A stretch of DNA of 64,000 bases, from positions 1-64,000 of the forward strand of contig CAMFCQ010000005.1 in NCBI GenBank assembly GCA_945948915.1, given 5' to 3'. The DNA comes from an uncultured Clostridia bacterium (GTDB lineage Bacteria > Bacillota > Clostridia > Christensenellales > Aristaeellaceae). This document shows positions 12,384-63,198 of this stretch, in pieces. The position numbers were made by a program, and so were the translations under genes. The notes beneath the pieces were generated by a model. That model ran no database searches. It saw only the letters and a program-made list of their open reading frames with translations, and was not told the DNA's origin. The stretch's first letter is position 1. Each line of letters opens with the position of its first letter.

Positions 12384-12462
12384 CAAAGCGGCTGAAAGCC
12401 GCTTCGAAGCGAAGAAGGGTTGAAATCCCCTGCTGGGTTTGGGCGGCAGCCCAAGGAGAAAA
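12384..12462 (+). repeat. Truncated copy (R6) of the mosaic intergenic repeat, supplying the next gene's ribosome site
   Basis: This segment matches the middle of the repeats at 20.7 and 32.7 kb: CGAAGCGAAGAAGGG, then TGAAATCCC, then GGTTTGGGCGGCAGCCCAA. Terminal parts are missing. The final CCCAAGGAG serves as the ribosome-binding site of the DHH gene. Confidence 0.7.
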
Positions 12463-12463
12463 C

Positions 12464-13378
12464 ATGACTGACAGAATCACTCATCTCTATACGCTGTGCG
12501 AAGCCGCCGCCGCGCGCGGCCGTCTCGTCATCACCGGCCACGACCGTGCGGACTTCGACTCCGCCGCCAGCTGTGTGCTGATGCAGCGCCTTCTGGCCGC
12601 GTGGGGCGTCAAAAGCGAGATCGCGCTGCATACGCCGGACAGACAGTCCCGCCGCGTGATGGCGCGCTTCGGCGTCGAGGTATCGGCGCTCGAGGGCGAA
12701 ACGACGCCGGAGGACGCGCTGATCCTCGTGGATCACCACCAGGCGACACGCGCGGGACAGGTCATTGTCTGCGTGGATCACCATCCGACGGACTACCCGC
12801 CGGACTTCCCCTATGTGCAGATCGGGGACTGCGGCGCATGCGCGGTGATGGTGCTGCGCCTGATGCAGGAGGCCGGTGCGCGCGTGACGCCGGAGGACGA
12901 GCGCCTGGCGGTCACCGCGCTGTATCTGGACACCATCGCGCTCAAGAGCGCCAAGATCACCCCGGAGGAGGCGGCTTGGGGCGAAAAGCAGGCCAGGCGG
13001 CTGGGGCTTGACGAGGACTGGCTCAGGCGCGAGGGCATGGGCCTGATGGACATGAGCCTGCCCGCGTGCGAGCTGGCGATGCTGGGCAAAAAGGTCTACG
13101 TGTTCGGAAAAAGGCGCGTGCTGTCCACCTATGTGCAGACGGATGCGATGACGCAGGAGAAGCTCGAGGCGATTCTTGCCGTGCTGCACGGGGAGATCGT
13201 GCGGGAGCAGGCTGATCTGTGGGTGTTTCTTGTGCACGATCCGTCGCGCCTGCGTTCCACGGAATACGACCTCACGCCGGACGGCGCGGTGCGCACGATA
13301 GCCTATGACTGCCTGATCTCCCGCGGCAGGGACGTGATGCCGCGCGTGGAGCGGGACATGCGAAAGGAAGAGGTATGA
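12464..13378 (+). CDS. DHH-family phosphoesterase
   Basis: The 304-residue protein has the DHH fold shared by manganese pyrophosphatases, RecJ and cyclic-dinucleotide hydrolases. Metal-binding stretches are GHDRADFDS near residue 24, VDHHQ near 88 and VDHHP near 105. No DHHA1 nucleic-acid domain with GGGH is evident, and the C-terminal part (about 190-290) is unlike NrnA. It may be a pyrophosphatase-like or small-nucleotide hydrolase; the substrate is not clear. Its stop overlaps the next start (ATGA), so translation is coupled to the Rsm22-like gene. Confidence 0.75.
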   Translation: MTDRITHLYTLCEAAAARGRLVITGHDRADFDSAASCVLMQRLLAAWGVKSEIALHTPDRQSRRVMARFGVEVSALEGETTPEDALILVDHHQATRAGQVIVCVDHHPTDYPPDFPYVQIGDCGACAVMVLRLMQEAGARVTPEDERLAVTALYLDTIALKSAKITPEEAAWGEKQARRLGLDEDWLRREGMGLMDMSLPACELAMLGKKVYVFGKRRVLSTYVQTDAMTQEKLEAILAVLHGEIVREQADLWVFLVHDPSRLRSTEYDLTPDGAVRTIAYDCLISRGRDVMPRVERDMRKEEV

Positions 13379-14340
13379 TGTCAGGATTCCCGCAGGAGCT
13401 GAGTGCGGCGCTTAACATGCTGGTCGCGGGGGAGGATGCAGCGGCACTGGCGCGTGACGCGCAGACGATCAGCGAAAACTACCGCCTGCGCACGGGGCAG
13501 GGCGGCCGCCTGCTGACGAAGGAGCGCGAGGCGGCTGCTTATGCGGCCTCGCGCATGCCGGCGACGTTTGCCGCGGCGCAGGAGGCGCTTTGGCAGGCGA
13601 GGGACGCGAGCGGCCTGGAGATTCGCTCGCTGCTGGACTGCGGCGCGGGTACGGGCGCGGTCAGCTGGGCGGCGGCAGAGGCTTTCCCGTTGGCGCGCAT
13701 CACCTGCCTGGAGCGCGAGGACGCCATGCGCAGCGTGGGCAGCACGCTCATGCGCGCGGGATCCGGCGCGCTGGCAGAGGCGGTCTGGTCGGCGTGGGAT
13801 CTGACGCAGGCGCAGGCGCTCCCCGGGGCCGATCTGGTGGCGGAGGGCTATATGCTCGGCGAGCTGCGGGAGGAGCTGCGCCTGCCGGCGGCGGAGCGGC
13901 TCTGGGACGCGGCGGAAAAGATGCTGGTGCTCATTGAGCCGGGGACGCCGCAGGGCTTTGCCAATCTGGCTGCTGTGCGCGCGCATCTGGCAGGCCTTGG
14001 GGCGCATGTGGCCGCGCCGTGCCCGGCGGGCTGCGCGCGCTGTCCGATGGAAGGGGACGACTGGTGCCACTTCACCGTGCGCGTGCAGCGCACCCGGCTG
14101 CACAAGGCGCTCAAGGGCGGCGACGCGCCATATGAGGACGAGAAGTTTGCCTATCTGGCGCTGACGCGGGAGGCGCCCAAGGCGCCGTGCAGCGCGCGTG
14201 TGCTGCGCCATCCGATGATCGCGCCGGGGCGCATCACGCTGACGCTGTGCGCGGGCGGCGGAAAGACCGTGCGCGTGGTGACAAAAAAAGACCCGCTTTG
14301 GAAGCGGGCCAGAAAGATCGGCGCGGGGGATTGCGTGTAA
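13375..14340 (+). CDS. Rsm22-like small-subunit rRNA methyltransferase-related protein
   Basis: The 321-residue protein matches the Rsm22 family, known from mitochondrial ribosome assembly and found in Firmicutes. Typical stretches are YRLRTGQGGRLL, AAYAASRMPATFAAA, the SAM-binding DCGAGTGAV loop near residue 86, EGYMLGEL, and the Cys-rich CPAGCARCPMEGDDWCHF (about 217-234), which likely binds an iron-sulfur cluster or zinc. The real substrate in bacteria is unknown. It is translationally coupled to the DHH gene. Its 3' end contains the terminator of the convergent ECF gene. Confidence 0.88.
   Translation: MMSGFPQELSAALNMLVAGEDAAALARDAQTISENYRLRTGQGGRLLTKEREAAAYAASRMPATFAAAQEALWQARDASGLEIRSLLDCGAGTGAVSWAAAEAFPLARITCLEREDAMRSVGSTLMRAGSGALAEAVWSAWDLTQAQALPGADLVAEGYMLGELREELRLPAAERLWDAAEKMLVLIEPGTPQGFANLAAVRAHLAGLGAHVAAPCPAGCARCPMEGDDWCHFTVRVQRTRLHKALKGGDAPYEDEKFAYLALTREAPKAPCSARVLRHPMIAPGRITLTLCAGGGKTVRVVTKKDPLWKRARKIGAGDCV
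14283..14308 (-). terminator. Terminator of the ECF gene, embedded in the Rsm22 reading frame
   Basis: On the minus strand CCCGCTT, a three-base loop and AAGCGGG are followed by TCTTTTTTT. It lies 33-58 bases past the ECF stop but inside the last codons of the convergent gene. Confidence 0.8.
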
Positions 14341-14904
14341 TCACAGCTTCTCGTACAGGCCGGCCTTCTTGAGGGCGGGCTTGAGCGCGCCCAGCAGGAT
14401 CGGCGCGACGATGAAGGCGAAGATGGCGTTCATCAGGCTGCCGGGCAGCTTGGTGAGCATCTTGGCGATGACGGCGTCAAAGGTCAGGCCATCGACGAGC
14501 TGGCCGAAGACGAAGGTCTTGAGCATGTACAGGGCGACGTAGGTCAGCGCGCCGAGCACGCTGCCGACGATGATCCTGGCGTGGTCGGCGGTGTCGGTCG
14601 TGTCCTTGCGGGCGGCTTTGTAGGCGATCAGGCCGGCGACCAGCGCGATGGCGCCCTTGTTGATGAAGGTGATGATGCACTCCGCGCCCCAGCCGGCGAC
14701 GATGTCATACAGGCCGGAGCCCAGGCCCGCGGCCAGGAAGCCCGCACCCGGGCCAAAGAGCAGGCCGCACAGCACGCACAGCGCGTTGGTCATGTGCAGC
14801 TGCGTGCCCATGAACGGGATGCGCAGGTAATTGACGACGAAGACGATGGCGGCCATCAGGCCGATGAAGCAGATTCTGAAAGTTTTGTTGCGGTTGTTTG
14901 CCAT
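14341..14904 (-). CDS. ECF transporter S component (substrate unknown)
   Basis: The 187-residue membrane protein has five to six hydrophobic segments and the layout of energy-coupling factor substrate-binding components. These capture vitamins or metals and pass them to a shared ATPase module encoded elsewhere. Typical marks are MAAIVFVVNYLRIP near the N-terminus and GLLFGPGAGFLAAGLGSGLYD in the third and fourth helices. No riboswitch is visible upstream; instead a palindrome covers the -35 region. The vitamin cannot be named from sequence alone. GGAAGGAAG precedes the start. Confidence 0.82.
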   Translation of the reverse strand: MANNRNKTFRICFIGLMAAIVFVVNYLRIPFMGTQLHMTNALCVLCGLLFGPGAGFLAAGLGSGLYDIVAGWGAECIITFINKGAIALVAGLIAYKAARKDTTDTADHARIIVGSVLGALTYVALYMLKTFVFGQLVDGLTFDAVIAKMLTKLPGSLMNAIFAFIVAPILLGALKPALKKAGLYEKL

Positions 14905-14946
14905 GGTAAAAACTTCCTTCCCTGTGTTTGATTGGGTTGTAACTGC

Positions 14947-14974
14947 ATTATAGCACGAACTGGCATGCGGTAAA
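14947..14974 (-). promoter_or_regulatory. Promoter of the ECF S-component gene
   Basis: On the minus strand TTTACC and TATAAT are separated by 16 bases. The -35 box lies in the centre of the palindrome at 14955-14986. Confidence 0.6.
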
Positions 14975-14986
14975 TAGCCAGTTCGT
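14955..14986. promoter_or_regulatory. Palindromic operator over the ECF promoter
   Basis: ACGAACTGGC and GCCAGTTCGT form perfect 10-base arms with a 12-base centre that contains the -35 box. A dimeric repressor sensing the transported vitamin would fit, but the regulator is not identified. A second, imperfect hairpin (CATGCCAGC/GCCGGCATG) lies at 14998-15018. Confidence 0.55.
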
Positions 14987-15024
14987 ATTTTTATGACCAT
15001 GCCAGCTTTGCCGGCATGCGGAGA

Positions 15025-15053
15025 TTGTGATGCACAGGGAAATATGATATAAT
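15025..15053 (+). promoter_or_regulatory. Promoter of the membrane glycosyltransferase operon
   Basis: TTGTGA at 15025-15030 and a perfect TATAAT at 15048-15053 are 17 bases apart. Confidence 0.7.
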
Positions 15054-15087
15054 GCTGAAATCGAGATGATTGCAAGGAGAATGAAGC

Positions 15088-16521
15088 ATGGAGCACAACA
15101 GCAGGGCCCGAAGCCTTTTCATTGCGCTGGGCATGACGCTGGCGCTTTTTGCCGTGCAGGCTGCATGGATGGGCAGCTCGCTTTCCTATATTTCCGGCGC
15201 GGGGCAGGCGCTTGTCCTCTCGGCGCTGTTTGCGCTGGTGTACGGCGGCGCGATGGCCGCGTTCATCTGCTTTCAAAAGCCGAAGACGGGCACGCTCGTC
15301 TTCACCGGCGTGTTTGCCGCCATCACCATGCTCGCGCGCGTGAGCATGCTGGATTTTGTGACGGCGGATTACGTCTCTTTTCTCTCCGGATGGGTGGGCA
15401 TGTTCCGCGAGGGCGGCTTTTCCATGCTGGCGGAGAATGTGGGCGATTACAACCTGATCTATCAGTATTTCCTGCTGCTGGTTTCCAGGGCGCCGCTGCA
15501 TGACCTGTACCTGATCAAGTACCTGACGGTCGTCTTTGATTATCTGCTGGCGCTGGCCATGATGCGCGCGGCGGAGCGGTTTGCGGGGGAGAAGGCGGCG
15601 CTGCCGGTGCTGCTGACGGTGATGGCGCTGCCTACGACGCTGCTGGACGGCGCATGCTGGGCGCAGTGCGACTCGGTGTACGTGTTCTTCATCATCATGA
15701 GCCTGTACTTCCTTGAAACGGACAGGCCGGTGCGCTCGGCTGTTTTCCTGTCGGTCGCCTTTGCCTTCAAGCTGCAGACGATCTTCTTCTTCCCGGTGGT
15801 GCTGCTGGGGCTCATCCACAGGAAGTACAGGCTGCGCGACGCGCTGGCGTTCTTTGCGGCGTACGTCGTGACGATGCTGCCCGCGCTGATGGCGGGCCGG
15901 CCGTTTTTTGACGCGCTGTCCGTGTACGCAAACCAGTCGATGGGCCAGTATTACGACCGGCTGACCTACAATGCGCCGAACCTGTATCTCTTCTTCCCGA
16001 TGCTGGAGTTTGCCAGCAGCCAGGAATTCACCTGGATGCGCTGCATCGAAGGGATCGACGGCAAGGGCACGAACGCTTTCCTGAATCCGGATCTGATGCC
16101 TGACCTGCAGCATGCCGCGCTGTATGCCTGTGTGATGCTGGTGCTCATCGCGGTGATTTACTGGCTGATTCACTGGAAGGAGATCACGCCGGACATGACG
16201 CTGGAGTTCGCGCTGTTTTGCGCGATTTTCCTGCCGTTTGTGATGCCCAAGATGCACGAGCGGTACTTCTATCTGGCGGACATGCTGTCCATCCTCTATG
16301 CGGCAAAGTATCCGCGGCGCAGGTTTATGCCGCTGCTGGTCGTCGGTGCGTCGCTGATGTGCTATGTGCCCTACCTGATGCGCCAGCGGCCCATCGACGA
16401 GCGCGTGCTGGCGCTGATGATGCTCGCGGCGCTGGTGATCGTGGGCCGTGACCTGCTTGTGCGCATGCGCAAAAACCGCGCGGCGCTCACGGTGATTCGG
16501 AAGGGAGGCGAGGCGGCATGA
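15088..16521 (+). CDS. Integral membrane GT-C glycosyltransferase, Gpi18/mannosyltransferase-like
   Basis: The 477-residue protein has about ten membrane segments and resembles GT-C enzymes that use lipid-linked sugars on the outer face. It shows an acidic loop after the third helix (LDFVTADYVSF), the ACWAQCDSVYVFF stretch, and MHERYFYLADM near residue 390, a motif seen in Gpi18-like mannosyltransferases. AAGGAG precedes the start. It is the first gene of a tight operon of five; the next gene overlaps its stop by four bases. The sugar and acceptor are unknown, but a cell-envelope glycan is likely. Confidence 0.8.
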   Translation: MEHNSRARSLFIALGMTLALFAVQAAWMGSSLSYISGAGQALVLSALFALVYGGAMAAFICFQKPKTGTLVFTGVFAAITMLARVSMLDFVTADYVSFLSGWVGMFREGGFSMLAENVGDYNLIYQYFLLLVSRAPLHDLYLIKYLTVVFDYLLALAMMRAAERFAGEKAALPVLLTVMALPTTLLDGACWAQCDSVYVFFIIMSLYFLETDRPVRSAVFLSVAFAFKLQTIFFFPVVLLGLIHRKYRLRDALAFFAAYVVTMLPALMAGRPFFDALSVYANQSMGQYYDRLTYNAPNLYLFFPMLEFASSQEFTWMRCIEGIDGKGTNAFLNPDLMPDLQHAALYACVMLVLIAVIYWLIHWKEITPDMTLEFALFCAIFLPFVMPKMHERYFYLADMLSILYAAKYPRRRFMPLLVVGASLMCYVPYLMRQRPIDERVLALMMLAALVIVGRDLLVRMRKNRAALTVIRKGGEAA

Positions 16522-17960
16522 TGAACCGGATGAAGGACGCTTTCGCTGCGTCTGAGCGCATCGCGAACCGGCATCGCCTGCTCCTGAGCGCTTTGCTGGC
16601 GCTGCTGCTGACCGGCGCGCTGGCGCTTAGCAACGTCTCCTCCGGCCCGCTCCACAACCTCAACGACATCGGCGGCTGGAACAACCGCGCGCTGTTCATC
16701 GGCATGAGCGCCGTGGTTCACCTGTCCATGCTGCTGCTGTGCGCGCTGCTCTCGCGCGTCAGCCTTGCGCGCACGGCTCTGCGGCAGCTGACCGTCACGG
16801 CGGGCATGGTGATCCTGCTGCTGGCGATCAACCAGAAGACGTACGCCTATGTGAATGTGATGCAGCCCGTCATCCGCGCGATGGACGAGGGCGGCCTGGC
16901 GGCGGGCATCCCGTTGGCCTCCGGCGTGTCCGCGCCGATGCTGCTGCTTTTGTATGGGATCACGCGCGGGCCGGTGTACGACATGTACCTGCTCAAGCTC
17001 TTTGCTATCGGCTGCGACCTGCTGTTAGGGCTGCTGGCGATGCGCGCGGCGGACCGGAACCGTCTGGGCCTGCGCGCCGAGGTGCTGCTGGCCCTGTGCA
17101 TGATTCTGCCGCAGGGCTTCATGAACGCCGCGTGCAGTGCGCTGCCGGAGATCGCGGCGGTGACGCTGCTGGCCGTCTCGCTGACGCTGGCGCTGGGCTG
17201 TGATCGGCCGAAGATGCTCGCCTCCGGCCTGTGCTGGGGCGCGGCCTGCGCGCTTTGCGGTGCGGCGCTGTATGCGCTGCCCGTGTATATCCTTCTGGTG
17301 CGGCGCGGCAGGATGAAGGTCAGGACATTGCTGGCGGGCGCCTGCGCGATGCCGCTGCTGTGTGTGCCGGCGATGCTCTCCGGCATGCCGGTGGTGGACG
17401 CGCTGGGCAGCCTGCTTGAGGCCAATCTGGGCATGCCGGCGTATGCCGCCGGTGCGCCGGGCATGGTCAGCCTGATTCCGCGCGCGGCGGTGGAGGAGAT
17501 GCCGCAGTATGCGTCCCTGCTGCGCCATCTGCCGGCGCTCGATACGCAGACCTATGCGCAGCAGTTCTACACGCAGGAGCACTTTGAGATCGTCATGCGC
17601 GGCTTTGCGCTGGCGGGGCTGGCCCTGTATCTGGGCGTGTGCGCGCTGGCTGGGCGCGCGAAGGACAAAACGCCGCTGCGCCGCGCGATGATCCTCGCGC
17701 TGGGCGCGCTGATCGCATGCCCGAACGTGACCTCGGCGGCATGGCTGGCGCTGGACGTGCTGTGCCTGTACGCCATCCTGGCCGAGCCGAAGCTGCGGCT
17801 GCCCGCGTGCATGACGCTGTTTGCGACGATGGCCTCCTCGAGCTACCCGATGACGGAGGAGGTCATGCTGCCGATGGTGTACGCGTTCGCCCTGTGCCTG
17901 GCGGCGCTGTGCATGCTGCTTGACGTGATCCCGATGGGAAAAGAGGAAACGCATGAGTGA
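16518..17960 (+). CDS. Multi-membrane protein, degenerate paralogue of the preceding glycosyltransferase
   Basis: The 480-residue protein has about ten membrane segments and the same general order of loops as its upstream neighbour. For example, ACSALPEIAAVTLL sits where the neighbour has ACWAQCDSVYVFF, and SSSYPMTEEVMLPMVYAF sits where it has MHERYFYLADM. The acidic residues and the HERYF motif are therefore lost. It may be an inactive partner or have another function. The ATGA overlap with the upstream gene suggests coupled translation and perhaps a complex. Confidence 0.65.
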   Translation: MMNRMKDAFAASERIANRHRLLLSALLALLLTGALALSNVSSGPLHNLNDIGGWNNRALFIGMSAVVHLSMLLLCALLSRVSLARTALRQLTVTAGMVILLLAINQKTYAYVNVMQPVIRAMDEGGLAAGIPLASGVSAPMLLLLYGITRGPVYDMYLLKLFAIGCDLLLGLLAMRAADRNRLGLRAEVLLALCMILPQGFMNAACSALPEIAAVTLLAVSLTLALGCDRPKMLASGLCWGAACALCGAALYALPVYILLVRRGRMKVRTLLAGACAMPLLCVPAMLSGMPVVDALGSLLEANLGMPAYAAGAPGMVSLIPRAAVEEMPQYASLLRHLPALDTQTYAQQFYTQEHFEIVMRGFALAGLALYLGVCALAGRAKDKTPLRRAMILALGALIACPNVTSAAWLALDVLCLYAILAEPKLRLPACMTLFATMASSSYPMTEEVMLPMVYAFALCLAALCMLLDVIPMGKEETHE

Positions 17961-18390
17961 GGAAATGAAGGCGCGCATCCGCGTGGTCTCCCGCCTGACG
18001 GAGCCGGACGGCAGCGTGCATGAGATCAAAAATGCCCGCGCGGGCGTGCTCAGGCGCACGGCGGACGGCCTGGTGCTCGAGTACGACGACGTACAGGACG
18101 AGGAAAAGGCGCACATCGTGCTGACGATGAAGCCGGGAAGGACGGCGCGGGAGAACCGCGCGCGCATGCAGCGCATGGGCATGGTCTCCAGCGTGCTCAC
18201 CTTCCTGCCGGGCGAGAAGATCGCCTCGAGCTATGTGACGGTCTACGGCGAGATTCCCGTGGCGGTGGACACGCGCAGCGTGGGGATTCGCACGCAGGAA
18301 AACGGCGGAGAGCTTCAGCTCGATTACGACGTGTACATGGGCGGCGAACGCACGTCCCGCGCGCGCATGGAGATCACATGGCGCGTGTGA
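17953..18390 (+). CDS. DUF1934 family protein (YwiB-like)
   Basis: The 145-residue protein fits the DUF1934 family, a small calycin-like beta barrel of unknown function that is common in Firmicutes. Visible marks are alternating beta strands, the central VLTMKPGR phrase with many arginines, and the terminal GGELQLDYDVYMGG stretch. In other Firmicutes it often stands beside argS. Here it starts 8 bases inside the upstream gene and its end overlaps the next by 13 bases, so it belongs to the same transcript. Confidence 0.75.
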   Translation: MSEEMKARIRVVSRLTEPDGSVHEIKNARAGVLRRTADGLVLEYDDVQDEEKAHIVLTMKPGRTARENRARMQRMGMVSSVLTFLPGEKIASSYVTVYGEIPVAVDTRSVGIRTQENGGELQLDYDVYMGGERTSRARMEITWRV

Positions 18391-18926
18391 CGGCGGTGCG
18401 TCTGCGGGCGCGGGCGCGGGAGGCAATGCTTTCAGCGGGCGGCCGGGGCTTTGTGCGGTTCCTGCCTGCGGGCGGCGCGCTGCTGGCGACGGACGCCATC
18501 CGGCGCTGCGCGGACGATGCGGCGCGCGCTGCGCTGACGGATGCGCTTGCGCAGGCGGGCTTTGTCTGCGAGATGCGCGGTGGGCTGCTGGAGCTGACGC
18601 CTGCGGACGATGTGCTTTCAGCGCTTTCCGCAAGCGAAAGGACAGCGATTGACTGGGAGAGCCCGCTGCACCCGGCGCAGGCGCTGGCCAATCGCTTCCA
18701 GGCGGCGGCCCGGCAGCCGCTGACAGGCGCCGGGCGGCAGCTGATCCTGGAGACGCTGCGGCTGACCTGGCTTGACGCGGACAGGCTGCTGGCGGGTCTG
18801 CCCGCGTTGCGTGCGCAGGCGGCGGTGATGCAGCGCCGGGGCGACAGGAGCGGCATGCACCAGGCCGGTGCACTGCTGCGCGAATACTGTGAACAGGAGC
18901 AGGGAGGAACGACGGATGAAGCTTGA
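18378..18926 (+). CDS. Hypothetical helical protein
   Basis: The 182-residue product is rich in Ala, Arg and Leu and probably all helical. I do not recognise a family. The first half (about 1-75) looks like a small alpha/beta domain, the second (about 90-175) like a helical bundle. It overlaps DUF1934 by 13 bases and the next gene by 11, which supports that it is translated. The high Ala/Arg content also fits a spurious frame in GC-rich DNA, but the tiling overlaps on both sides argue against that. Confidence 0.6.
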   Translation: MARVTAVRLRARAREAMLSAGGRGFVRFLPAGGALLATDAIRRCADDAARAALTDALAQAGFVCEMRGGLLELTPADDVLSALSASERTAIDWESPLHPAQALANRFQAAARQPLTGAGRQLILETLRLTWLDADRLLAGLPALRAQAAVMQRRGDRSGMHQAGALLREYCEQEQGGTTDEA

Positions 18927-20708: not shown

Positions 20709-20996
20709 ATACTCTTTTCTGATAGAAACGAGCAATAAACGCGAAGCGAAGAAGGGAGTCTGAGGGACCGAAGCCTGCCGCCCGCTGTGCGGGAAGAAGG
20801 CAGGCGAAGCGTCGGGAATCGCAAGGAGCGCCGATGGCGCGACTATGCGAGTTCCCCGGACTGAAATCCCTCAGGCAGGTTTGGGCGGCAGCCCAACGTA
20901 TCCCCACGTGGCGAAGCCATTCGGTCAAAGCAGTCAGGGAGCGAAGCGTTACCTGACGGGGCTTAGCACTTGGCTGTTTCTATTTGAAAACAGTAT
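20709..20996. repeat. Mosaic intergenic element R1 (288 bases, full length with insert)
   Basis: The ends are imperfect inverted repeats: ATACTCTTTTCTGATAGAAAC on the left side and its near-complement ending AGTAT on the right. Inside are the GCGAAGCGAAGAAGG box, a 94-base insert (20768-20861) placed in a hairpin loop, the TTTGGGCGGCAGCCCAA hairpin and a GTCAGG/CCTGAC hairpin. It fills the gap between two convergent genes. No protein is encoded; open frames inside are repeated in other copies only because the DNA repeats. Confidence 0.85.
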
Positions 20997-32737: not shown

Positions 32738-32933
32738 GATACTCTTTTCTGATAGAAACGAGCAATAAACGCGAAGCGAAGAAGGGAGTCTGAGGGATGA
32801 AATCCCTCAGGCAGGTTTGGGCGGCAGCCCAACGTATCCCCACGTGGCGAAGCCATTCGGTCAAAGCAGTCAGCGAGCGAAGCGTTACCTGACGGGGTTT
32901 AGCACTTGGCTGTTTCTATTTGAAAATAGTATG
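32738..32933. repeat. Mosaic intergenic element R2 (about 195 bases, no insert)
   Basis: This copy has the same terminal inverted repeats as R1 (GATACTCTTTTCTGATAGAAAC on the left side, near-complement ending AGTATG on the right). It has the uninterrupted hairpin CTGAGGGA-TGAAA-TCCCTCAG (32790-32810) where R1 carries its 94-base insert. It is otherwise over 95 percent like R1 by eye. It lies between nth and the DUF3343 gene. Confidence 0.85.
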
Positions 32934-39311: not shown

Positions 39312-39345
39312 AGCTTTGTCTGTCGTGGGAATTGCAGCCATCTCA

Positions 39346-39541
39346 TACTATTCTCAAATAGAAACGAGCTATAAGCGCGAAGCGAAGAAGGGGTCTGGGG
39401 ACTGGTCCCCAGGCTAGGGGTTTGGGGGATGAAATCCCCCAACGTCTCCATATCGCGAAGCGATCAAAGAAAAGCAGTCAGGGAGCGAAGCGTTACCTGA
39501 CGGCCGGTTATTGCATGGCCGATTTTATTTGAGAGTAGTAT
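39346..39541. repeat. Mosaic intergenic element R3 (196 bases)
   Basis: The ends are inverted repeats: ATACTATTCTCAAATAGAAA on the left and its near-complement ending AGTAT on the right. It shares GCGCGAAGCGAAGAAGG and the GTCAGGGAGCGAAGCG box with R1 and R2. Its constant-loop hairpin is TTGGGGGA-TGAAA-TCCCCCAA (39422-39442), so the stem differs from R2 but remains paired. A second stem, CTGGGGAC/GTCCCCAG, sits just before. Confidence 0.85.
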
Positions 39542-39699
39542 CATGCTTTTTCAAATCAAAACAGCGATGTGCTAAGCGCGTCAGGCAACGCTTCGCTCCC
39601 TGACTGCTTTGCCTGAATAGCTTCAGGGATACGTTGGGCTGCTGCCCAAACCACGCAAGGGATTTCATCCCTTGACCCTTCTTCACTTCGCGCGGTTTA
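39542..39699. repeat. Mosaic intergenic element R4, inverted, abutting R3
   Basis: This copy lies in the opposite orientation, tail to tail with R3. It has one recognisable end (CATGCTTTTTCAAATCAAAAC), the GTCAGG box, the GGGCTGCTGCCC hairpin and the constant-loop hairpin CAAGGGA-TTTCA-TCCCTTG (39656-39674). The other terminal repeat is missing: the element runs directly into the last codon of rarA and supplies its TAA stop. Confidence 0.8.
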
Positions 39700-56367: not shown

Positions 56368-56370
56368 GAG

Positions 56371-56438: not shown

Positions 56439-57695
56439 TTAGAAGCCCATAGCGAAGTTCACGGTGTCCTCAGCGTTGGCCAGCTCGGTGTCCAGATCGC
56501 CGCCGTTGATGTAGTTGGTCAGCGCGGTGCCCAGAGCGTCGCGGGCGTCATAGTAGAACGCGCCGGTCTGGTTGGCCGGGACATGCGCGGTGTACTCGAC
56601 GATCTTCGCGAAGATCGCGTCGCCGTTGAAGTACTCGTTGCCCGCGGTGTAGTTGGAGCCTTCCTTCGCGCCGGCCCAGGTGCCGATGGCGGAGGTGGTC
56701 GGGAGGATGGTGTTGTAGAAGTCGACGTTGCGGTAGAGCTTCATGAAGTCAAGCGCCAGATCGATGTCGGTGCCGTTGGTGAAGACCCAGGAGGAACCGC
56801 CGTTGTTGGAGTAGTTGGTCGCGGACTCGAAGCCGGACAGCTTCGGCATGTTGGTCAGCGCCCACTTGCCGGCCTGATCCTGCACGCCCATGACGGTGCC
56901 CAGGATCCAGCAGCCGTTGATCGCGCTGCCGGCGGTGCCGTTGGAGAAGGTGCCGCAGTACTCGTCCCAGGTGTTGACCTCGACGAGGACGCCTTCAAGC
57001 GCCATGGTCTTGTAGATCTCAAGCGCAGCCTTGCAGACTTCGTTGTTGGCGAAGTTGACGGAGCCGTCCTCGTTGAACATGGACGCGCCGCAGGACTGGA
57101 GCATCATGCAGATGGTATCGACAGAGCCGGCCTGAGCGGTCAGCAGCGGCTTGCCGGTCTTGGCCTTGACGTCCTTGCCGATCTCGATGAAGCGCTCCCA
57201 GGTGATGTCGGTCACGTCAGCGATGGTGTAGCCGGCCGCCTCGAGGTAATCGGTGCGGTAAGCGCCCACGACGGTGCCCGCATCGAACGGCACGCCGTAG
57301 TTCTTGCCGTCCACGATGGAGTACGCCAGCTTGCCCTCGGCGAAGCCTTCAAAGTCGTACTTGCCGGTGATGTCGGCATAGACTTCCGGATAGCTCAGCA
57401 CGAACTTCTGCGCGGAGTTGTCCTGGATGAGCATGATGTCCGGCAGGTTGGAGATGTCGCCGGCGGAAGCAGCGGTGATGACGCGGGTCTCGATGTCATC
57501 GGAGAGAACCTCTTCGATCACGATCTCAACGTCCGGATGCTCCGCGTTGTACATTTCCTTCGCGACCTTCATGGCGGCGATGTTGAAGTTCGGGTCCCAG
57601 GTCCAGATGGTGATCTTGCCGTCCTCGGCAGCCAGCGCGGCGCCGCAGGAGACGATGATCGTCAGGGCCAGGAGCAGGGAAACAAGCTTTTTCAT
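56439..57695 (-). CDS. Sugar ABC transporter substrate-binding protein
   Basis: The 418-residue secreted protein captures the sugar. Its N-terminus is a signal peptide; IVSC at 14-17 fits a lipobox, which would anchor it as a lipoprotein, but a normal cleavage site at ALA-AED is also present. The mature part has the type 1 extracellular solute-binding fold with many Trp and Asn residues. AGGAGG precedes the start. It is the first gene of the importer operon; the base and codon bias is the smooth one of highly expressed genes. Confidence 0.92.
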   Translation of the reverse strand: MKKLVSLLLALTIIVSCGAALAAEDGKITIWTWDPNFNIAAMKVAKEMYNAEHPDVEIVIEEVLSDDIETRVITAASAGDISNLPDIMLIQDNSAQKFVLSYPEVYADITGKYDFEGFAEGKLAYSIVDGKNYGVPFDAGTVVGAYRTDYLEAAGYTIADVTDITWERFIEIGKDVKAKTGKPLLTAQAGSVDTICMMLQSCGASMFNEDGSVNFANNEVCKAALEIYKTMALEGVLVEVNTWDEYCGTFSNGTAGSAINGCWILGTVMGVQDQAGKWALTNMPKLSGFESATNYSNNGGSSWVFTNGTDIDLALDFMKLYRNVDFYNTILPTTSAIGTWAGAKEGSNYTAGNEYFNGDAIFAKIVEYTAHVPANQTGAFYYDARDALGTALTNYINGGDLDTELANAEDTVNFAMGF

Positions 57696-57759
57696 GGTGA
57701 TATTCCTCCTCATGATGTTTGTTCAGTTCAGCCAAGTCCAAGGCCGAATTGTTGGTATC

Positions 57760-57765
57760 ATTATA
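57760..57765 (-). promoter_or_regulatory. -10 box of the sugar-importer operon
   Basis: On the minus strand a perfect TATAAT lies about 65 bases ahead of the binding-protein gene, without a recognisable -35 box. That fits activation by the AraC regulator encoded just upstream. Confidence 0.5.
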
Positions 57766-57856
57766 CCGTGCAGAAACGCCGCTATGTGTGCAGATTCGCT
57801 CCAAACCTGAACGGATACGCTCATTCTTGCTCCAGATGCGCACAAAACGGCGGGGG

Positions 57857-58777
57857 TTATTTGTTCAAACGGCTGCGCCGCCATTCGCTGGGGCTGACGC
57901 CTGCATACTGCTTGAAGTTCCTGTTGAACGCGGCGATGGAGGAATAGCCGGAGCGCACGGCGATGTTCTGGATGGGGTCGGACGTGGTGCGCAGCAGGTT
58001 CATCGCGCGGTGCACGCGGTAGCGGTTGACGTGCTCCATGGGGCTCATGCCCATGATTTTGGCAAATTGCTTGCGGAAGTAGCTCTCGCTCATCAGGCAG
58101 GTGCGCGCCAGCGTGCTGACCCGGATGTCCTCCTTATAGTGCTCATAGATGTAGGCCAGAGCGGGCTCGACGGGCTGGCGCTGGTAATGATCGACCGGCT
58201 CGCCGGGGCTCAGCAGCGGTATGCGGCTGTGCTGACGCGCGATTTCAAGCAGCAGCAGGTATACGCACAGCTCGAGCTGCTGCTCCGCGTCTGCGTCACC
58301 CTTGCGGTGCAGGTCGTACATCAGCTTGACGATGCTGTCCAGCGCGCTGTCCGTGCTGCTCTCCAGAAACAGGCCGGTCTCCCGGATGCCGTCCAGCAGG
58401 GCGAAGATCGCGCTGCGGAAGCGGTCGGGCACATTGCGCTGCAGATAGTCGTCGCAGATGACGAGATAGCGCCAGTGCGTCAGCGGCTCTCCCTCGTTGG
58501 TCTGATTGTGGTAGACGCCGCGCGGCGCGACGATGACCGAGCCGGCGGAGAAGCGCCAGCCCCTGTCATGCAGGTACACCTGCCCGCTGCCGGCCAGGCA
58601 GATGCCGATTTCCAGGTAGTTGTGCACATGCAGGCTGTCGGGCATGTAGGGCGGGTAGTACGGCGTATCCAGCATCGTCACCAGGAGGCTGTCCTCCGCG
58701 GGCGGATAGCTGCGGTACTCGCAGCTGGGCGGCTCTTCCAGCTGACGGCGCAGCTCGGCTTCAGATGAGGTTTGCAT
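57857..58777 (-). CDS. AraC-family transcriptional regulator
   Basis: The 306-residue protein has an N-terminal cupin sugar-sensing domain (about 25-150, with HVHNYLEIGICLAGSG and WRFSAGSVIVAPRGVYH) and two C-terminal helix-turn-helix motifs (about 205-302, ending with the AraC signature SGYSSIAAFNRNFKQYAGVSPSEWRR). It probably activates the importer and the beta-galactosidase genes. The start at 58777 has AAAGGTG upstream and overlaps the preceding gene by 17 bases. Confidence 0.93.
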   Translation of the reverse strand: MQTSSEAELRRQLEEPPSCEYRSYPPAEDSLLVTMLDTPYYPPYMPDSLHVHNYLEIGICLAGSGQVYLHDRGWRFSAGSVIVAPRGVYHNQTNEGEPLTHWRYLVICDDYLQRNVPDRFRSAIFALLDGIRETGLFLESSTDSALDSIVKLMYDLHRKGDADAEQQLELCVYLLLLEIARQHSRIPLLSPGEPVDHYQRQPVEPALAYIYEHYKEDIRVSTLARTCLMSESYFRKQFAKIMGMSPMEHVNRYRVHRAMNLLRTTSDPIQNIAVRSGYSSIAAFNRNFKQYAGVSPSEWRRSRLNK

Positions 58778-59333
58778 GGGTGAACACCTTTCCCGGGCAG
58801 AGCCGGCGCAGACAGTGCAGCAGCTGGTTCGTGGGCTGCAGATAGATGCGCACAATATACCCGTCCTCCGGGCCGGAGCCGTGGGCGTAAAGCGCGCAGC
58901 TGGGCTTGTCCGGATCCTGCGCGGCGGTGTAGTAGGTAACGCGGTGTCTTCTGTCGGCGGCGGCAAAGGCCGCTTCGCCCTGCTCGACCTCCGGGGTGAA
59001 CTGGTCGGCGATGACGATGACGCGCCGCAGATCCACGCAGGCGAACGCCTCGTTCACGGGCCTTGTGCGCGTGCCGCTCAGGCGGCGGATGTGCAGGTCA
59101 TACCCGTCCAGCTGGTATTCGTAGCTGACGGAGATCACGCCCTTGTAATACCAGGCGAAAAACAGCGTGCCCAGCGCGGGGAAGAGCATCAGCGTGCCCC
59201 ACATGCTGCCCAGAAACGTGAAGATGGCAACGGAAACATACATCAGCACGAGGATCACCTTATTGGCTGTGGGGATCCTGCGGATGACGGTCTGGCGGTA
59301 GGTGATGTCCGCGATTTCGGGGTTCAGGGCCAT
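58761..59333 (-). CDS. Small membrane protein of unknown function (DUF6106-like)
   Basis: The 190-residue protein has two membrane helices at about 24-66, then a soluble domain of alternating strands. It looks like the DUF6106 type known from Clostridia, but I am not certain. It lies between a ribbon-helix-helix gene and the AraC gene and overlaps the latter, so it is part of a three-gene regulatory transcript. GGAGG lies 9 bases upstream of the start. Confidence 0.65.
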   Translation of the reverse strand: MALNPEIADITYRQTVIRRIPTANKVILVLMYVSVAIFTFLGSMWGTLMLFPALGTLFFAWYYKGVISVSYEYQLDGYDLHIRRLSGTRTRPVNEAFACVDLRRVIVIADQFTPEVEQGEAAFAAADRRHRVTYYTAAQDPDKPSCALYAHGSGPEDGYIVRIYLQPTNQLLHCLRRLCPGKVFTHANLI

Positions 59334-59357
59334 GGACAAAGTCCTCCTTGCTTATGC

Positions 59358-59558
59358 TCAGTCCTTTTCCTTGATTTCCATGTGATCCAGCGCATATTGC
59401 AGGGCCATCCCGATCAGCTCATTGCGCGAGCGGTTGGTCTTGATGGAAAGCGCGTTGTAAGCTTCCTGCAAGGTACGGTCAATGCGAATCGTCATGGTGA
59501 CGGCTTTGTCTTCCTTGGGGATGATGACGAACTTCTCAGTCACAATGTATTCCTCCAT
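59358..59558 (-). CDS. Ribbon-helix-helix DNA-binding protein
   Basis: The 66-residue protein has the CopG/Arc-type fold: the strand KAVTMTIRIDRTL is followed by two helices with the phrase NRSRNELIGMALQYAL, where the Ser-Arg-Asn-Glu-Leu turn is typical. It should bind DNA as a dimer. No toxin partner is seen beside it. No ribosome site precedes ATG 59558, and a TATAAT box lies only 15 bases upstream, so the message may be nearly leaderless. Confidence 0.82.
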   Translation of the reverse strand: MEEYIVTEKFVIIPKEDKAVTMTIRIDRTLQEAYNALSIKTNRSRNELIGMALQYALDHMEIKEKD

Positions 59559-59572
59559 GCAGTTTTGAATAC

Positions 59573-59578
59573 ATTATA
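59573..59578 (-). promoter_or_regulatory. -10 box of the ribbon-helix-helix gene, within a TTGAA/TTCAA dyad
   Basis: On the minus strand TATAAT (59578 to 59573) sits between TTGAA and TTCAA half-sites 14 bases apart. This could be an autoregulatory operator. No clear -35 box is seen. Confidence 0.4.
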
Positions 59579-59620
59579 GAATCTTCAATCATGTCGAATC
59601 TATGACACAAAGTGAATTGA

Positions 59621-59642
59621 AATCTCAATGCAATCTCAATGC
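59621..59642 (+). repeat. Two tandem 11-base repeats between divergent promoters
   Basis: AATCTCAATGC occurs twice in a row (59621-59631 and 59632-59642), flanked by TTGAA on the left and TTCAA on the right. One helical turn between copies suggests a protein binding site. Confidence 0.45.
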
Positions 59643-59679
59643 GATTCAAAGAGAACAGGAAGAATTTGGCCCGGACATG

Positions 59680-59708
59680 CAGACAGGAGGAGGAGAATCC
59701 GATATAAT
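59680..59708 (+). promoter_or_regulatory. Promoter of the GH20 gene
   Basis: CAGACA at 59680-59685 and a perfect TATAAT at 59703-59708 are 17 bases apart. Confidence 0.6.
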
Positions 59709-59737
59709 GAGAAAAAAATACACTTGGAGGAACCGCC

Positions 59738-61546
59738 ATGTTGACTTCAGAATCAATCAAAAAAGCCCGCGCGCGCGCACAGCGCGTGACGGGCGTGGAG
59801 CTTCCGTTTGCGGTGGACGTGACGGCGGGCGAGGGGCTTTGCGTGACGCTGGCGGGCGGCGCGGCCGCAATCGCCGCGGAGGACGAAAATGCGCTTGCGC
59901 GCGGCTTCTTCCTGCTGAGCCGCTGCGTGCGCGAGGGGAAGACGGCGCTGTCCGTGCGCCAGAAGCGGCATTTTGCCTCCTGCGGCGCGATGGTGGACTG
60001 CTCGCGCGGCGCCGTGATGAAGCCGGAGGCCGTGTGCCGCTGCATCGACCAGCTCGCCTGCCTGGGCATGAACCTGCTGATGCTCTACACGGAGGACACC
60101 TACGAGGTGCCGGAGTACCCGACGCTGGGCTATCTGCGCGGACGCTATACGCAGGATGACCTGCGGGCGCTGGACGCTTACGCGGCTCAGGCAGGCGTGG
60201 AGCTGGTGCCCTGCATCCAGACGCTGGGGCATATGCGCCAGTTCTTGCAGTGGCAGGACAACGCGGCGCTGCGCGATCAGATGGATATCCTGATGATCGA
60301 CGACGAGCGGACGTATGCGTTCATCGAGGCGGAGATCCGCGCGATGCGCGCGTGCATGCGCACAGACCGCATCCACATCGGCATGGACGAGGCGCACGGC
60401 GTGGGCCTGGGCCAGTATCTGCTTGCGCACGGCCAGACCGACCGCTTTGCGCTGCTGAACCGGCATCTTGAGCGCGTGTGCGCCATCTGCGAAAGGTATG
60501 GCTTCAGGCCGATCATGTGGAGCGACATGTTCTTCCGCCTGGGCTCAAAAACCAACGACTATTACGACGTGGAGAGCGACATCCCGCAGTGCGTCATCGA
60601 CGGCATTCCGCCGGTCGATCTGTGCTACTGGGATTACTACCACGAGGACGAGGCGTTCTACGACCACATGCTGACGCAGCACGCGCGCATGGGCGCTCGC
60701 ACGGTGTTCGCCGGCGGCGTCTGGACGTGGAGCGGCTTCCTGCCCCATGTGAAGAAGACCGAAGCGACGATGTTCCCGGCGCTGAGGGCCTGCGCGAAGC
60801 ACCGCGTGGACACGGTGCTGGCGACGATGTGGGGCGACGACGCGGCGGAGACCAACGTCTTCCTGGCCGGCGCGCTGCTGCCCATCTTCTCGGAGAGCTG
60901 CTGGCAGGGCTGCGATTGCCCGAAGGAGGAGATGATCCTCGCGGGCGAGGCGCTCACCGGCATGCCGCGCGCGGTGCTTGACGCGATGGGGGAATTCTAT
61001 CCCAGCGAAAAGGATGTGCGCACGGGCAAGAGCCTGATCTGGTGCGACCCGCTGTATCCGCTGGAGATGACGGAGGATACGCTGGAAGCGGCGATTGCGC
61101 GCAGCGACGCGGCGCTGGGCATCCTGGCGGCGCAGGAGGATCGTCTTGAGATCCGCTATGCGTCGGCGCTCTTTGAAATCGCACGCGAAAAGGCGCGCTG
61201 GATGCGTGACCTGCGGGCGCGGTACGCAGCGGGCGACCGGGCCTGGCTGCGCGACGTGGCGCTTGCCGCCGTGCCGGACATGCTCGAGCAGTATGATACG
61301 CTCCTGAAGCTGCACCGCGCGCTCTGGGAGCGGGACATGAAGCGCTTTGGCTGGGAGGTGCTCGCGCTGCGCTACGGCGCGGTCATGGGCCGCCTGCGGG
61401 ACGCGGCCGACGAGATCAGGCGGTATCTCGCGGGCGAGCTTCAGGCCATCGAGGAGCTGGAGGAGACGCCGCTGCCGTCCGTGCGCGCCGCGCTGCATTT
61501 TGAGAATCTGGTCACGCCGTCGGCGATGATGGGCATGGGGTTCTGA
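59738..61546 (+). CDS. Glycoside hydrolase family 20 (beta-N-acetylhexosaminidase-like)
   Basis: The 602-residue enzyme belongs to the cytoplasmic GH20 branch of gut Clostridia. The barrel shows LLMLYTEDTYEVPEYP, CIQTLGHMRQFLQW and the catalytic Asp217-Glu218 pair in IGMDEAH; Asp assists the acetamido group and Glu is the acid. Trp residues of the substrate pocket lie in GGVWTWSGF. The C-terminal 150 residues are helical and of unknown use. No signal peptide, so it would act on imported N-acetylhexosamine sugars from mucin or milk glycans. TTGGAGGAA precedes the start. Confidence 0.9.
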   Translation: MLTSESIKKARARAQRVTGVELPFAVDVTAGEGLCVTLAGGAAAIAAEDENALARGFFLLSRCVREGKTALSVRQKRHFASCGAMVDCSRGAVMKPEAVCRCIDQLACLGMNLLMLYTEDTYEVPEYPTLGYLRGRYTQDDLRALDAYAAQAGVELVPCIQTLGHMRQFLQWQDNAALRDQMDILMIDDERTYAFIEAEIRAMRACMRTDRIHIGMDEAHGVGLGQYLLAHGQTDRFALLNRHLERVCAICERYGFRPIMWSDMFFRLGSKTNDYYDVESDIPQCVIDGIPPVDLCYWDYYHEDEAFYDHMLTQHARMGARTVFAGGVWTWSGFLPHVKKTEATMFPALRACAKHRVDTVLATMWGDDAAETNVFLAGALLPIFSESCWQGCDCPKEEMILAGEALTGMPRAVLDAMGEFYPSEKDVRTGKSLIWCDPLYPLEMTEDTLEAAIARSDAALGILAAQEDRLEIRYASALFEIAREKARWMRDLRARYAAGDRAWLRDVALAAVPDMLEQYDTLLKLHRALWERDMKRFGWEVLALRYGAVMGRLRDAADEIRRYLAGELQAIEELEETPLPSVRAALHFENLVTPSAMMGMGF

Positions 61547-61577
61547 TGCTGATTCTCGTGAAAAGGATGGAATAATC

Positions 61578-61613
61578 AACGCGCCGAAAAGGTTTACCTT
61601 TTCGGCGCGCGTT
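61578..61613. terminator. Hairpin between the convergent GH20 and MATE genes
   Basis: AACGCGCCGAAAAGG pairs with its complement around a TTTA loop. No clear U-tract follows, but the stem is very stable and lies between two convergent stops. Confidence 0.65.
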
Positions 61614-61639
61614 CGTCTGATATGAAATGGAATCAGGCA

Positions 61640-62929
61640 TCAGCCTCTCTGCGCCGCCCTGACGCTGAACAGCGACAGCGTGCAGCACGCCGCCTCCGTG
61701 ACGACGAAGGAGAGCCACACGCCGGTCACGTCCAGCAGGCGGCTGAGCAGCAGCGCGGCGGGCACGAGCAGCACGCAGCTGCGCAGCAGCGAAATCAGCA
61801 GCGCGCGCTTCGGGCAGCCCACGGCGCTTAAGAGCGCGGCAGCGGCGATGTTCACCCCGGCGAAGAGATAGCCGGTGAAGTAGACGCGCAGCCCGGAAAC
61901 GGCGATGTGAAGCAGATGCGCGTCGCCCTCGTGGTTGAACGCGCCGGCGAGCGGCTGCGCGAGGAGGAAGACCAGCGCGAAGATCATTGCGCTCAGCGCG
62001 ATGACGGTGACGCGCGTATAGGACAGCAGGCGGCGCATGCCCGTGCGGTCGTCCGCGCCGAAGACCCGGCTGGCCAGCGGCTGGATGCCCTGCCCGACGC
62101 CGGTGAAGATCGACGTCGCCACGAGCGCTGTGTTGGCGATCACGCCGTAGGCCGCCACGCCGATGTAGCCGCCCAGCTGCATGAGCAGCAGGTTGAACGT
62201 CAGCAGGGAGATGGCCGAGGCCAGCTCGCCCACAAGCGCGGAGAGGCCGTAGGCAAGCAGATGCAGCGTCTCGCGCACGCCATACAGACAGCGGGAAAGG
62301 CGCAACGTGCAGCGCGGCGTGAAAAAGTGAGCAAGCAGCACCGGCAGGCTCAGACACGCGGAGATGCCCGTGGCCAGAACCGCGCCGAACATGCCCATCC
62401 CCAGCGGGAACAGGAACAGATAGTCCAGCACGATATTGAGCCCGCTGCTCACCAGCATGGAGAGCATGGCCAGATTTGGTGCACCGTCGTTGCTGACAAA
62501 GCCGCGCAGCAGGCTGGCTAGGATGTAGACCGGCGAAAAGAGCAGCGTCATGCGCACATAGGTCGTCGTGAGGGCGAAGGTCGCCTCGTCCGCGCCGAGC
62601 AGGCGGCTTAGCGGCCCGGCGAAAAGGATGCCGGTGAGCACAAGCAGCAGCGAGAATGCGCCGGCGCACAGCAGCGCCGTGGGCAGAGAGCGGCCTGCGC
62701 CTTGGCCCTCGGCCCTGCGCAGGGAGAAGTCCGTGCCGCCGCCAACGCCGACCAGCTGCCCGATGCCGGTGACGATGCTGAAGACCGTGATGGACAGATT
62801 GAGCGCAGCCAAGCCGGACGCGCCCAGCGCCATGGAGACAAACAGGGTGTCCACGAGGATGTAGCACGACAGGCCGATCATGCCGGCGATGTTCTGGGCG
62901 ACATAGCGCAGAAAGACCCTATGGTTCAT
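61640..62929 (-). CDS. MATE-family efflux transporter
   Basis: The 429-residue membrane protein has twelve helices in two similar halves, the hallmark of MATE pumps. N-terminal phrases such as IGLSCYILVDTLFVSMALGASGLAALNL and the middle VGVAAYGVIANTALVATSIFTGVGQGIQPL fit the DinF/NorM-like group that extrudes drugs or metabolites with Na or H gradients. AAGGAG lies 8 bases ahead of ATG 62929, better placed than the in-frame GTG at 62938. It is alone on its transcript. Confidence 0.92.
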   Translation of the reverse strand: MNHRVFLRYVAQNIAGMIGLSCYILVDTLFVSMALGASGLAALNLSITVFSIVTGIGQLVGVGGGTDFSLRRAEGQGAGRSLPTALLCAGAFSLLLVLTGILFAGPLSRLLGADEATFALTTTYVRMTLLFSPVYILASLLRGFVSNDGAPNLAMLSMLVSSGLNIVLDYLFLFPLGMGMFGAVLATGISACLSLPVLLAHFFTPRCTLRLSRCLYGVRETLHLLAYGLSALVGELASAISLLTFNLLLMQLGGYIGVAAYGVIANTALVATSIFTGVGQGIQPLASRVFGADDRTGMRRLLSYTRVTVIALSAMIFALVFLLAQPLAGAFNHEGDAHLLHIAVSGLRVYFTGYLFAGVNIAAAALLSAVGCPKRALLISLLRSCVLLVPAALLLSRLLDVTGVWLSFVVTEAACCTLSLFSVRAAQRG

Positions 62930-62962
62930 GAGCAGCACTCCTTGATGAATGAAAAGAATCGG

Positions 62963-63198
62963 GCCATAGGCGCGAAGCGAAGAAGGAAGTCTGAGGGACC
63001 GGAGCCTGCCGCCCGCTGTGCGGGAAACAGGCAGGCGGAGCGTCGGGAATCGGAAGGAGCGCCAATGGCGCGACTATGCGAGTTCCCCGGATCATTGTCC
63101 CAGGGGTATGGGGGCGAGGCCCCTATCGTCTTCCAACGCGAAGCGCAATTGACAGGAATCGCTGCGGAGCCGGAGGCGACTATTGCGATTCCGCCCCC
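62963..63198. repeat. Mosaic intergenic element R5 (with the same insert as R1)
   Basis: It begins with CATAGGCGCGAAGCGAAGAAGG and contains the same insert as R1 (GGAGCCTGCCGCCCGC to GCGAGTTCCCCGGA, about 63000-63090) in the same place, after CTGAGGGA. Beyond it the sequence differs: a GGGGCGAGGCCCC hairpin, then GAATCGC...GCGATTC around a further box. The terminal inverted repeats of R1 to R3 are not seen. Confidence 0.75.

What the first reader, a model, noticed from the sequence alone, without database searches (positions are those of the whole stretch)
12384..63198. A mosaic intergenic element family with a covarying hairpin
Six copies (R6 12384, R1 20709, R2 32738, R3 39346, R4 39542, R5 62963) share boxes GCGAAGCGAAGAAGG and GTCAGGGAGCGAAGCG. 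The hairpin with constant TGAAA loop has arms CTGAGGGA/TCCCTCAG in R2, TTGGGGGA/TCCCCCAA in R3 and CAAGGGA/TCCCTTG in R4. Both sides change together, so pairing is selected. R1 to R3 have about 22-base imperfect terminal inverted repeats, like a MITE. I do not recognise the family.
Basis: seen in the sequence. Interest (0 to 1): 0.75.

Follow-up and report, generated by a model that had tools for sequence, protein, structure and literature searches.

The report
Shuffled hairpin repeats behind gut-bacterium genes
The window holds six copies of a repeat, found in one group of uncultured gut Clostridia, made of interchangeable hairpins that sits mostly just behind genes; some copies are packaged as small transposons, and at the same gene junction in different species the hairpin letters often differ while the folding is kept.

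Summary
Among the genomes sampled the family is confined to one genus (20 of 29 genus genomes match; outside it, control level). Pairing covaries: 18 of 20 pairs change on both sides, 0 of 500 shuffles reach the observed values.

Two layers. (1) A modular hairpin array, nearly always intergenic, almost absent from divergent gaps (1 of 115 against 29 of 145 gaps; replicated in relatives), biased to the genes' strand; copies without TIRs start a median 28 nt after a same-strand stop codon. At the R6 junction it is shared by several species with different stems. (2) Some arrays ride in 193-290-bp MITEs with 3-bp TNA duplications (49 of 54 pairs); an IS630-family element with matching ends and TAA duplication lies in relative G017.

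An RNA role is likely but unproven: the G-U against A-C test was flat.

The parts
12396..12455 (+). R6 (ends approximate): degraded array copy between an intrinsic terminator and the ribosome-binding site of a DHH-like gene (gene label recalled, not searched); left hairpin, box 1, broken first hairpin, second hairpin TTGGGC-GGCA-GCCCAA
   Evidence: covariance-model match 12400-12459, 29.9 bits; copies at the same junction in G015, G004, G012
20709..20996 (+). R1: 288-bp MITE form with TIRs 20709-20733 and 20972-20996, duplication TCA/TCA
20768..20861 (+). 94-bp GC-rich module inside the first hairpin of R1; a related stretch lies in R5
   Evidence: D1 and D3 bound the insert; D4 20724-20860 matches 62955-63091 at 91%
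32739..32932 (+). R2: 194-bp MITE form, duplication TGA/TGA; core 32767-32840 scores 98.9 bits, the best of the table
39345..39541 (+). R3: 197-bp MITE form (second subfamily), duplication TCA/TCA; hairpins CTGGGGA-CTGG-TCCCCAG and TTGGGGGAT-GAA-ATCCCCCAA
39545..39700 (-). R4 (ends approximate): array copy facing R3; box 1 39677-39691 (one mismatch) starts 6 nt after the called stop of the gene on its right; box 4 39589-39604
62963..63198 (+).

Best explanation
It is a family of modular hairpin arrays (box 1, one to three swappable hairpins, optional nested module, alternative tails) in the intergenic DNA of one genus of uncultured Clostridia. SHOWN: many arrays sit in terminal inverted repeats and carry 3-bp TNA flanking duplications, sometimes with the TAA/TGA stop codon of a neighbouring gene as the duplicated target. 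SHOWN: copies lie almost always behind genes, are nearly absent from divergent gaps and favour the genes' strand; [quoted passage not shown] INFERRED: an IS630-family transposase moved the MITE forms in trans; TIRs decay in older copies; the position means most arrays are transcribed as 3'-UTR or intercistronic RNA; the folded RNA is what is kept, most likely working like REP or BOX elements on mRNA 3' ends (exonuclease barrier, processing, or differential expression inside operons). Stems turn over by exchange of hairpin modules between copies and by compensatory change.
For: Copy number and range. MITE: 49 of 54 TIR pairs with identical TNA flanks (TCA 18, TAA 14, TTA 9, TGA 8); seven copies identical to a 194-bp query; the duplicated TNA is the stop codon of the gene read into the element in 8 of 49 and of a facing gene in 2 of 49. 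Empty sites: 5 of 49 joined flanks align across the junction in a relative; C63:14649 against L188 is clean, C50:13562 against L284 and C41:9787 against L215 less so, C80:1115 and C102:4550 because that MITE lies inside another array. Partner: L315 (G017) has ends ATACTAAACTCAAATT / ATACTATTCTCAAATT, TAA/TAA and ORFs matching the IS630 model; 15 end bases equal those of the R3 form by eye. Own-genome IS630 relics (partly by eye). Position: 155 of 156 intergenic; divergent gaps 1 of 115 against 29 of 145 without element, p=2e-7; co-directional same strand 56 of 71, p=1e-6; relatives 149 of 155 intergenic, 1 of 120 against 62 of 277 divergent, 58 of 80 same strand. 50 of 77 non-TIR copies behind a same-strand gene start under 35 nt from its stop, 8 of 77 with a terminator between. 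Structure: covariation score 0.312 against 0.154 shuffled and at most 0.104 slid. Junctions: R6 in G015, G004, G012 with three different first stems; C17:39683 against L269 has a C-G to T-A change in the second hairpin. RNA hints: bases facing the invariant GGG are C or T in 89-96% at three positions; sense strand folds better than shuffles predict in 174 of 273.
Against: Single changes in the two main stems are G-U in 23 cells and A-C in 16 (15 and 16 distinct variants; p=0.34 and 1.0): no sign that the RNA strand rather than pairing in both strands is preserved. The sense-strand folding excess is only 1.1 kcal/mol. Position bias is also expected of a parasite purged from promoters. Of 11 junction pairs laid side by side, two keep the same two stems (C7:34661/L259; L239/L255 first site), and some copies have broken stems (R6 itself, L198). 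No DDE_3 transposase at E<=1e-5 in the own genome. The L315 transposase is split over two overlapping frames, so it may need frameshifting or be broken; one of 20 DDE_3 loci gave matching ends and TSD, a second (L307) similar ends with TTA/TCA. No transcript data. Gene calls are from a home-made caller.
Confidence: 0.6

Rival explanations
1. Selfish MITE DNA only. The hairpins are passengers; matched arms arise because whole palindromic modules are copied between elements by gene conversion and because template-switching restores perfect palindromes. Gene-side position is what survives purifying selection.
For: TIRs, duplications and identical copies; flat G-U/A-C balance; whole-module differences at shared junctions, e.g. 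C17:36757 against L269; [quoted passage not shown]
Against: Standard pairs in 95.9% of cells (on an alignment fitted to the structure), also at junctions shared by species 75-85% identical in the adjoining gene (R6); the strand bias in co-directional gaps (56 of 71; 58 of 80) is not explained by position alone.
Confidence: 0.3
2. A REP/BIME-like family spread by a REP-associated (Y1/HUH) transposase acting on single-stranded hairpins; the TIRs are a later capture.
For: Gene-side position, nearness to stop codons and alternative matched stems are reported for REPs (PMC3733652 passages; PMC12306157 passages). GCGAAGC, recalled as an unusually stable DNA mini-hairpin (one search gave listings only), is 27 times denser in elements than outside, in part by construction since box 1 contains it.
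Against: No GTAG or CGTC tag adjoins the core consistently (alignment, by eye); units are much longer than the 20-40 bp given for REPs in the abstract of PMC3733652.
Confidence: 0.1
3. A cis-regulatory or noncoding RNA family (leader, attenuator or small RNA).
For: Covarying model with a closing helix and two hairpins; some copies end just before a ribosome-binding site (R6, C7:34661, C27:27706).
Against: No Rfam match at gathering score to the elements; one sub-threshold match to RF02937, E=0.18 in L020, did not recur at E<=2 when L020 and 14 other loci were searched (its two matches above gathering, SRP RNA and L20 leader, lie in flanking DNA). Loops vary. Neighbouring genes were not tested for a common function.
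Confidence: 0.05

Closest known systems
REP / BIME (GTAG- and CGTC-tagged palindromic repeats)
   Same: Palindromes with alternative complementary stems, mostly in unidirectional and convergent gaps, close to 3' ends of upstream ORFs (PMC3733652, passages seen)
   Different: Multi-hairpin arrays, 70-290 bp, without a consistent GTAG/CGTC tag; part of the copies ride in TIRs with TNA duplication; RAYT not tested
BOX elements of Streptococcus pneumoniae
   Same: Modular, variable in size, repeated, mobilisation through TIRs proposed (PMC3049150, passages and section 6)
   Different: Sequences not compared; BOX is slightly over-represented between divergent genes, here such gaps are nearly empty (1 of 115)
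RUP of S. pneumoniae (IS630-Spn1 TIRs)
   Same: Non-autonomous repeat with TIRs like an IS630-family element, proposed to move in trans (PMC3049150)
   Different: RUP is a simple 107-bp AT-rich unit; TA duplication is recalled for IS630, here it is TNA; here the cargo is a hairpin array that also exists without TIRs
Short palindromic / double-hairpin repeats of organelle DNA
   Same: Hairpin repeats filling intergenic DNA (PMC2670323 passages)
   Different: Organelle elements; no IS630-type ends known to me; stem compensation there is from recall

Membership tests
MITE | Terminal inverted repeats | tested here: met
   67 TIR sites at up to 3 mismatches, 0 in the reversed control; paired ends. 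A subset of copies only
MITE | Target-site duplication | tested here: met
   49 of 54 pairs, 3-bp TNA; one of the five exceptions is a pairing 3.3 kb apart
MITE | Short, without transposase, ends shared with a transposase-bearing element | tested here: met
   193-290 bp units; IS630-family L315 with matching ends and TAA/TAA; whether L315 is active is not known
IS630-derived MITE (RUP-like) | TA dinucleotide duplication (recalled) | tested here: not met
   Duplication is TNA, N taking all four bases
REP | GTAG or CGTC tetranucleotide at one end | tested here: not met
   Not conserved beside the core hairpins in A1 (by eye); a CGT follows the second hairpin and GTAG begins one alternative tail
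REP | Location mostly in unidirectional and convergent gaps | tested here: met
REP | RAYT gene in the genome | not tested
BOX | Homology to boxA, boxB, boxC | not tested
   BOX sequences were not fetched; only the architecture was compared from PMC3049150
Any Rfam family | Match at gathering score | tested here: not met
   Window and 20 related loci; sub-threshold matches only near elements

The most novel reading that the evidence does not exclude
A site-resident RNA structure family in which position and fold are inherited but sequence is not: arrays stay at the same gene junction through speciation while their hairpins are rewritten by swapping with other copies and by paired substitutions, with a MITE moved by an IS630-family transposase as the supply route that delivers new arrays into stop codons and gene 3' ends.
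Probability: 0.25. Interest if true: 0.75.

Novelty: new variant of a known kind. Interest (0 to 1): 0.55.

Why it matters
Bacterial REP, BOX and MITE repeats have long been known without a clear answer to whether they work as RNA, as DNA or not at all. Here one genus offers many genomes with over a hundred copies, a probable partner transposase, shared junctions with different stems, and a native series of matched double changes, so the question becomes directly testable. A TNA duplication by an IS630-family route, and stop codons as targets, would also interest transposon specialists.

Tried and rejected
IS5-family partner: TNA first suggested IS5 (recalled). The own genome's DDE_Tnp_1 genes (C62, C143, C104) match IS5_3 and have other ends. 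A scrap beside an ATACTAATT end matched IS5_4, but by BLAST and by eye that end belongs to an IS630 relic fused to the scrap. Nine IS5_4 loci of the genus showed no convincing paired ATACT ends by eye. Rejected in favour of IS630.

Rfam RF02937 at E=0.18 in L020: not reproduced. RNA-strand test by G-U against A-C: flat, reported as evidence against. The first stem-class assignment mixed interrupted copies and was redone with at most one mismatch to a list of templates (223 first and 184 second hairpins kept of 287 unique copies). A test for covariation beside the closing helix was mis-indexed and is not used.

The occupancy table of orthologous gaps (both 18, own only 8, relative only 7, neither 28; p=0.0002) is inflated because both sets were fetched around elements; I rely on the R6 and R3/R4 junctions, fetched by the neighbouring gene. 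Other collections: an exact 29-base pattern in viral contigs and R2 by distant blastn in plasmids and phages gave no match. Literature on repeats of gut Clostridia: listings only, nothing on this family seen; one search returned no paper.
Full report
WHAT IS THERE. A covariance model built from 36 cores finds at least 148 copies here (150 candidates were scored, so a lower bound) and matches in 20 of 29 genus genomes; nine genomes have 119 or more and nine have none. In 297 genomes drawn from the order, two of them from the genus, 22 genomes outside the genus have an exact box-1 site: 19 have one, two have two and one has three in one cluster; the reversed control hits 16 genomes by my count. 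Equal contig lengths suggest that G015, G012, G004, G018, G023, G026 and G028 are among them, so loci such as L269 and L188 are probably the same genome as G015.

ANATOMY. A copy reads: left end, box 1 (GCGAAGCGAAGAAGGG), first hairpin, optional extra hairpin, second hairpin, CGT plus a pyrimidine run, then one of several tails. Among 287 unique copies, 223 first and 184 second hairpins fit a template with at most one mismatch; they show nine perfect first-stem types and twelve perfect second-stem types. Loops vary. R1 is R2 with a 94-bp module inside the first hairpin. On the alignment of 135 matches (133 distinct) from 86 sources, the window and 85 of the loci held, 95.9% of cells pair, 18 of 20 pairs change on both sides, and 0 of 500 shuffles reach the observed value on any of the five measures; sliding the partner by one to three columns lowers the score from 0.312 to at most 0.104. 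The alignment is fitted to its structure and many copies are related by descent, so these figures show strength, not number of events.

THE MITE LAYER. Of 54 paired TIR ends in the fetched stretches, 49 have the same 3-bp flank of form TNA; one of the five exceptions is a pairing 3.3 kb apart. Lengths are 193-197 and 288-290 bp; seven 194-bp copies are identical to the query. In 8 of 49 the duplicated TNA is the stop codon of the gene read into the element, in 2 of 49 that of a facing gene. Joined flanks of 5 of 49 align across the junction in a relative: C63:14649 cleanly, C50:13562 and C41:9787 less so, and C80:1115 and C102:4550 because that MITE lies in another array. A second MITE family with ends ATACTAATTC follows the same TNA rule in 4 of 5 two-ended copies, read by eye. 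Among 20 DDE_3 loci of the genus, one, L315 from G017, has paired ends of this type with equal flanks: ATACTAAACTCAAATT and ATACTATTCTCAAATT, TAA on both sides. Its two overlapping ORFs match the IS630 model (65 bits, below the 100-bit cut-off, and 145 bits, above it) and helix-turn-helix and DDE_3 domains. Whether the frame overlap is programmed or a break is open. L307, also G017, has similar ends with TTA/TCA. In the own genome I found only relics (partly by eye) and no DDE_3 match at E<=1e-5.

GENE CONTEXT. Genes were called with a home-made hexamer caller (477 genes in 473 kb). Of 156 box-1 sites (up to two mismatches) 155 are intergenic. Gaps holding an element: 64 co-directional, 50 convergent, 1 divergent; gaps of 40 bp or more without: 101, 15, 29 (p=2e-7 for divergent). 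In co-directional gaps 56 of 71 elements share the genes' strand (p=1e-6). In 121 non-overlapping segments of relatives, 149 of 155 sites are intergenic and the pattern repeats: 75, 44, 1 against 184, 31, 62, and 58 of 80 on the same strand. Copies without recognised TIRs behind a same-strand gene start a median 28 nt after its stop, 50 of 77 under 35 nt, with a terminator between in 8 of 77; TIR copies sit further away (median 89.5 nt to box 1) and 20 of 56 follow a terminator.

SAME PLACE, DIFFERENT HAIRPINS. The gene behind R6 was located in 16 other genomes and its upstream gap read by eye. Three (G015, G004, G012) carry an array at the same junction, between terminator and ribosome-binding site; G013 has a degraded one; four (G023, G011, G005, G002) run from terminator straight to the ribosome-binding site; in eight the junction is different or unclear. 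The three first stems are CAAGGGGC/GCCCCTTG, TTGAGGGAT/ATCCCTCAA and GTTTGAGGGGC/GCCCCTCAAAC; the second hairpins differ too, that of G015 being interrupted by a nested module. At R3/R4, G015 has arrays at both positions with other modules, G004 has one, G012 none (by eye). lays 11 further junction pairs side by side, chosen from the list, which was cut. Two pairs keep the same two stems (C7:34661/L259 and the first L239/L255 site); the other nine differ in at least one hairpin. At C17:39683 against L269 the second hairpin differs by one C-G to T-A pair while the first is another type; at C17:36757 the first hundred bases differ beside flanks 94-96% identical. So both paired substitution and module exchange occur.

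RNA OR DNA. For RNA: strand bias relative to genes; bases facing the invariant GGG are pyrimidine in 89-96% at three positions in the 177 of 274 copies that could be anchored without reference to pairing, with T about 4.4 times purines, though transition bias explains part of it; the sense strand folds 1.1 kcal/mol better than shuffles predict (174 of 273 copies). Against: single changes in the main stems are G-U 23 and A-C 16, no asymmetry. I hold an RNA role more likely than not, unproven.

COMPARISON. REPs share position, nearness to stop codons and alternative stems (PMC3733652 and PMC12306157, passages only). BOX shares modularity and RUP shares IS630-type ends (PMC3049150, passages and section 6). 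In what I read, none combines a MITE with TNA duplication and IS630-family ends, a swappable multi-hairpin cargo that also occurs without TIRs, and shared junctions with rewritten stems. No Rfam match at gathering score to the elements. I saw no paper on this family in the searches; listings and abstract openings only, except for passages of the papers named above, of PMC10969869 and of PMC2670323.

Noticed in passing
window 1-53 (-); own genome C2:48435-48595, C9:29818-29979, C28:28359-28520, C94:1547-1708: Second MITE family, about 161 bp, ends ATACTAATTC, TNA flanks equal in 4 of 5 two-ended copies (by eye; C13:28422 is the exception); a related copy splits an IS630 relic at C43.
   Followed up: partly
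L138 2934-2995 (own genome C29:26933): A decayed left end of the family whose altered box 1 (GGAGAAGGGAGG) lies where the ribosome-binding site of the next gene, dGTPase-like (label recalled), is expected.
   Followed up: no
own genome C62 about 2867-3760, C143 about 2447-3370, C104 about 6300-7222: IS5-family (NCBIfam IS5_3) elements with ends GAGTGTGTTTCTAAA or TAGGGTGTGTTTCTAAAG, transposase in two overlapping frames.
   Followed up: partly
G017 contig ends: About 20 of the listed equal-scoring matches start 29-60 bases from a contig's first base in G017, the genome that also holds L315: possibly a recent burst that broke the assembly.
   Followed up: no
window 3191-3351: Tandem repeats of a 42-bp unit (D5 and D8), rich in CAT/CAC and GAG/GAA triplets in one frame; not checked against a gene.
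   Followed up: no
own-genome elements, 40.5 kb masked: Heptamer GCGAAGC is 27 times denser inside elements than outside (327 in 40.5 kb against 130 in 432.5 kb), in part because box 1 contains it.
   Followed up: partly
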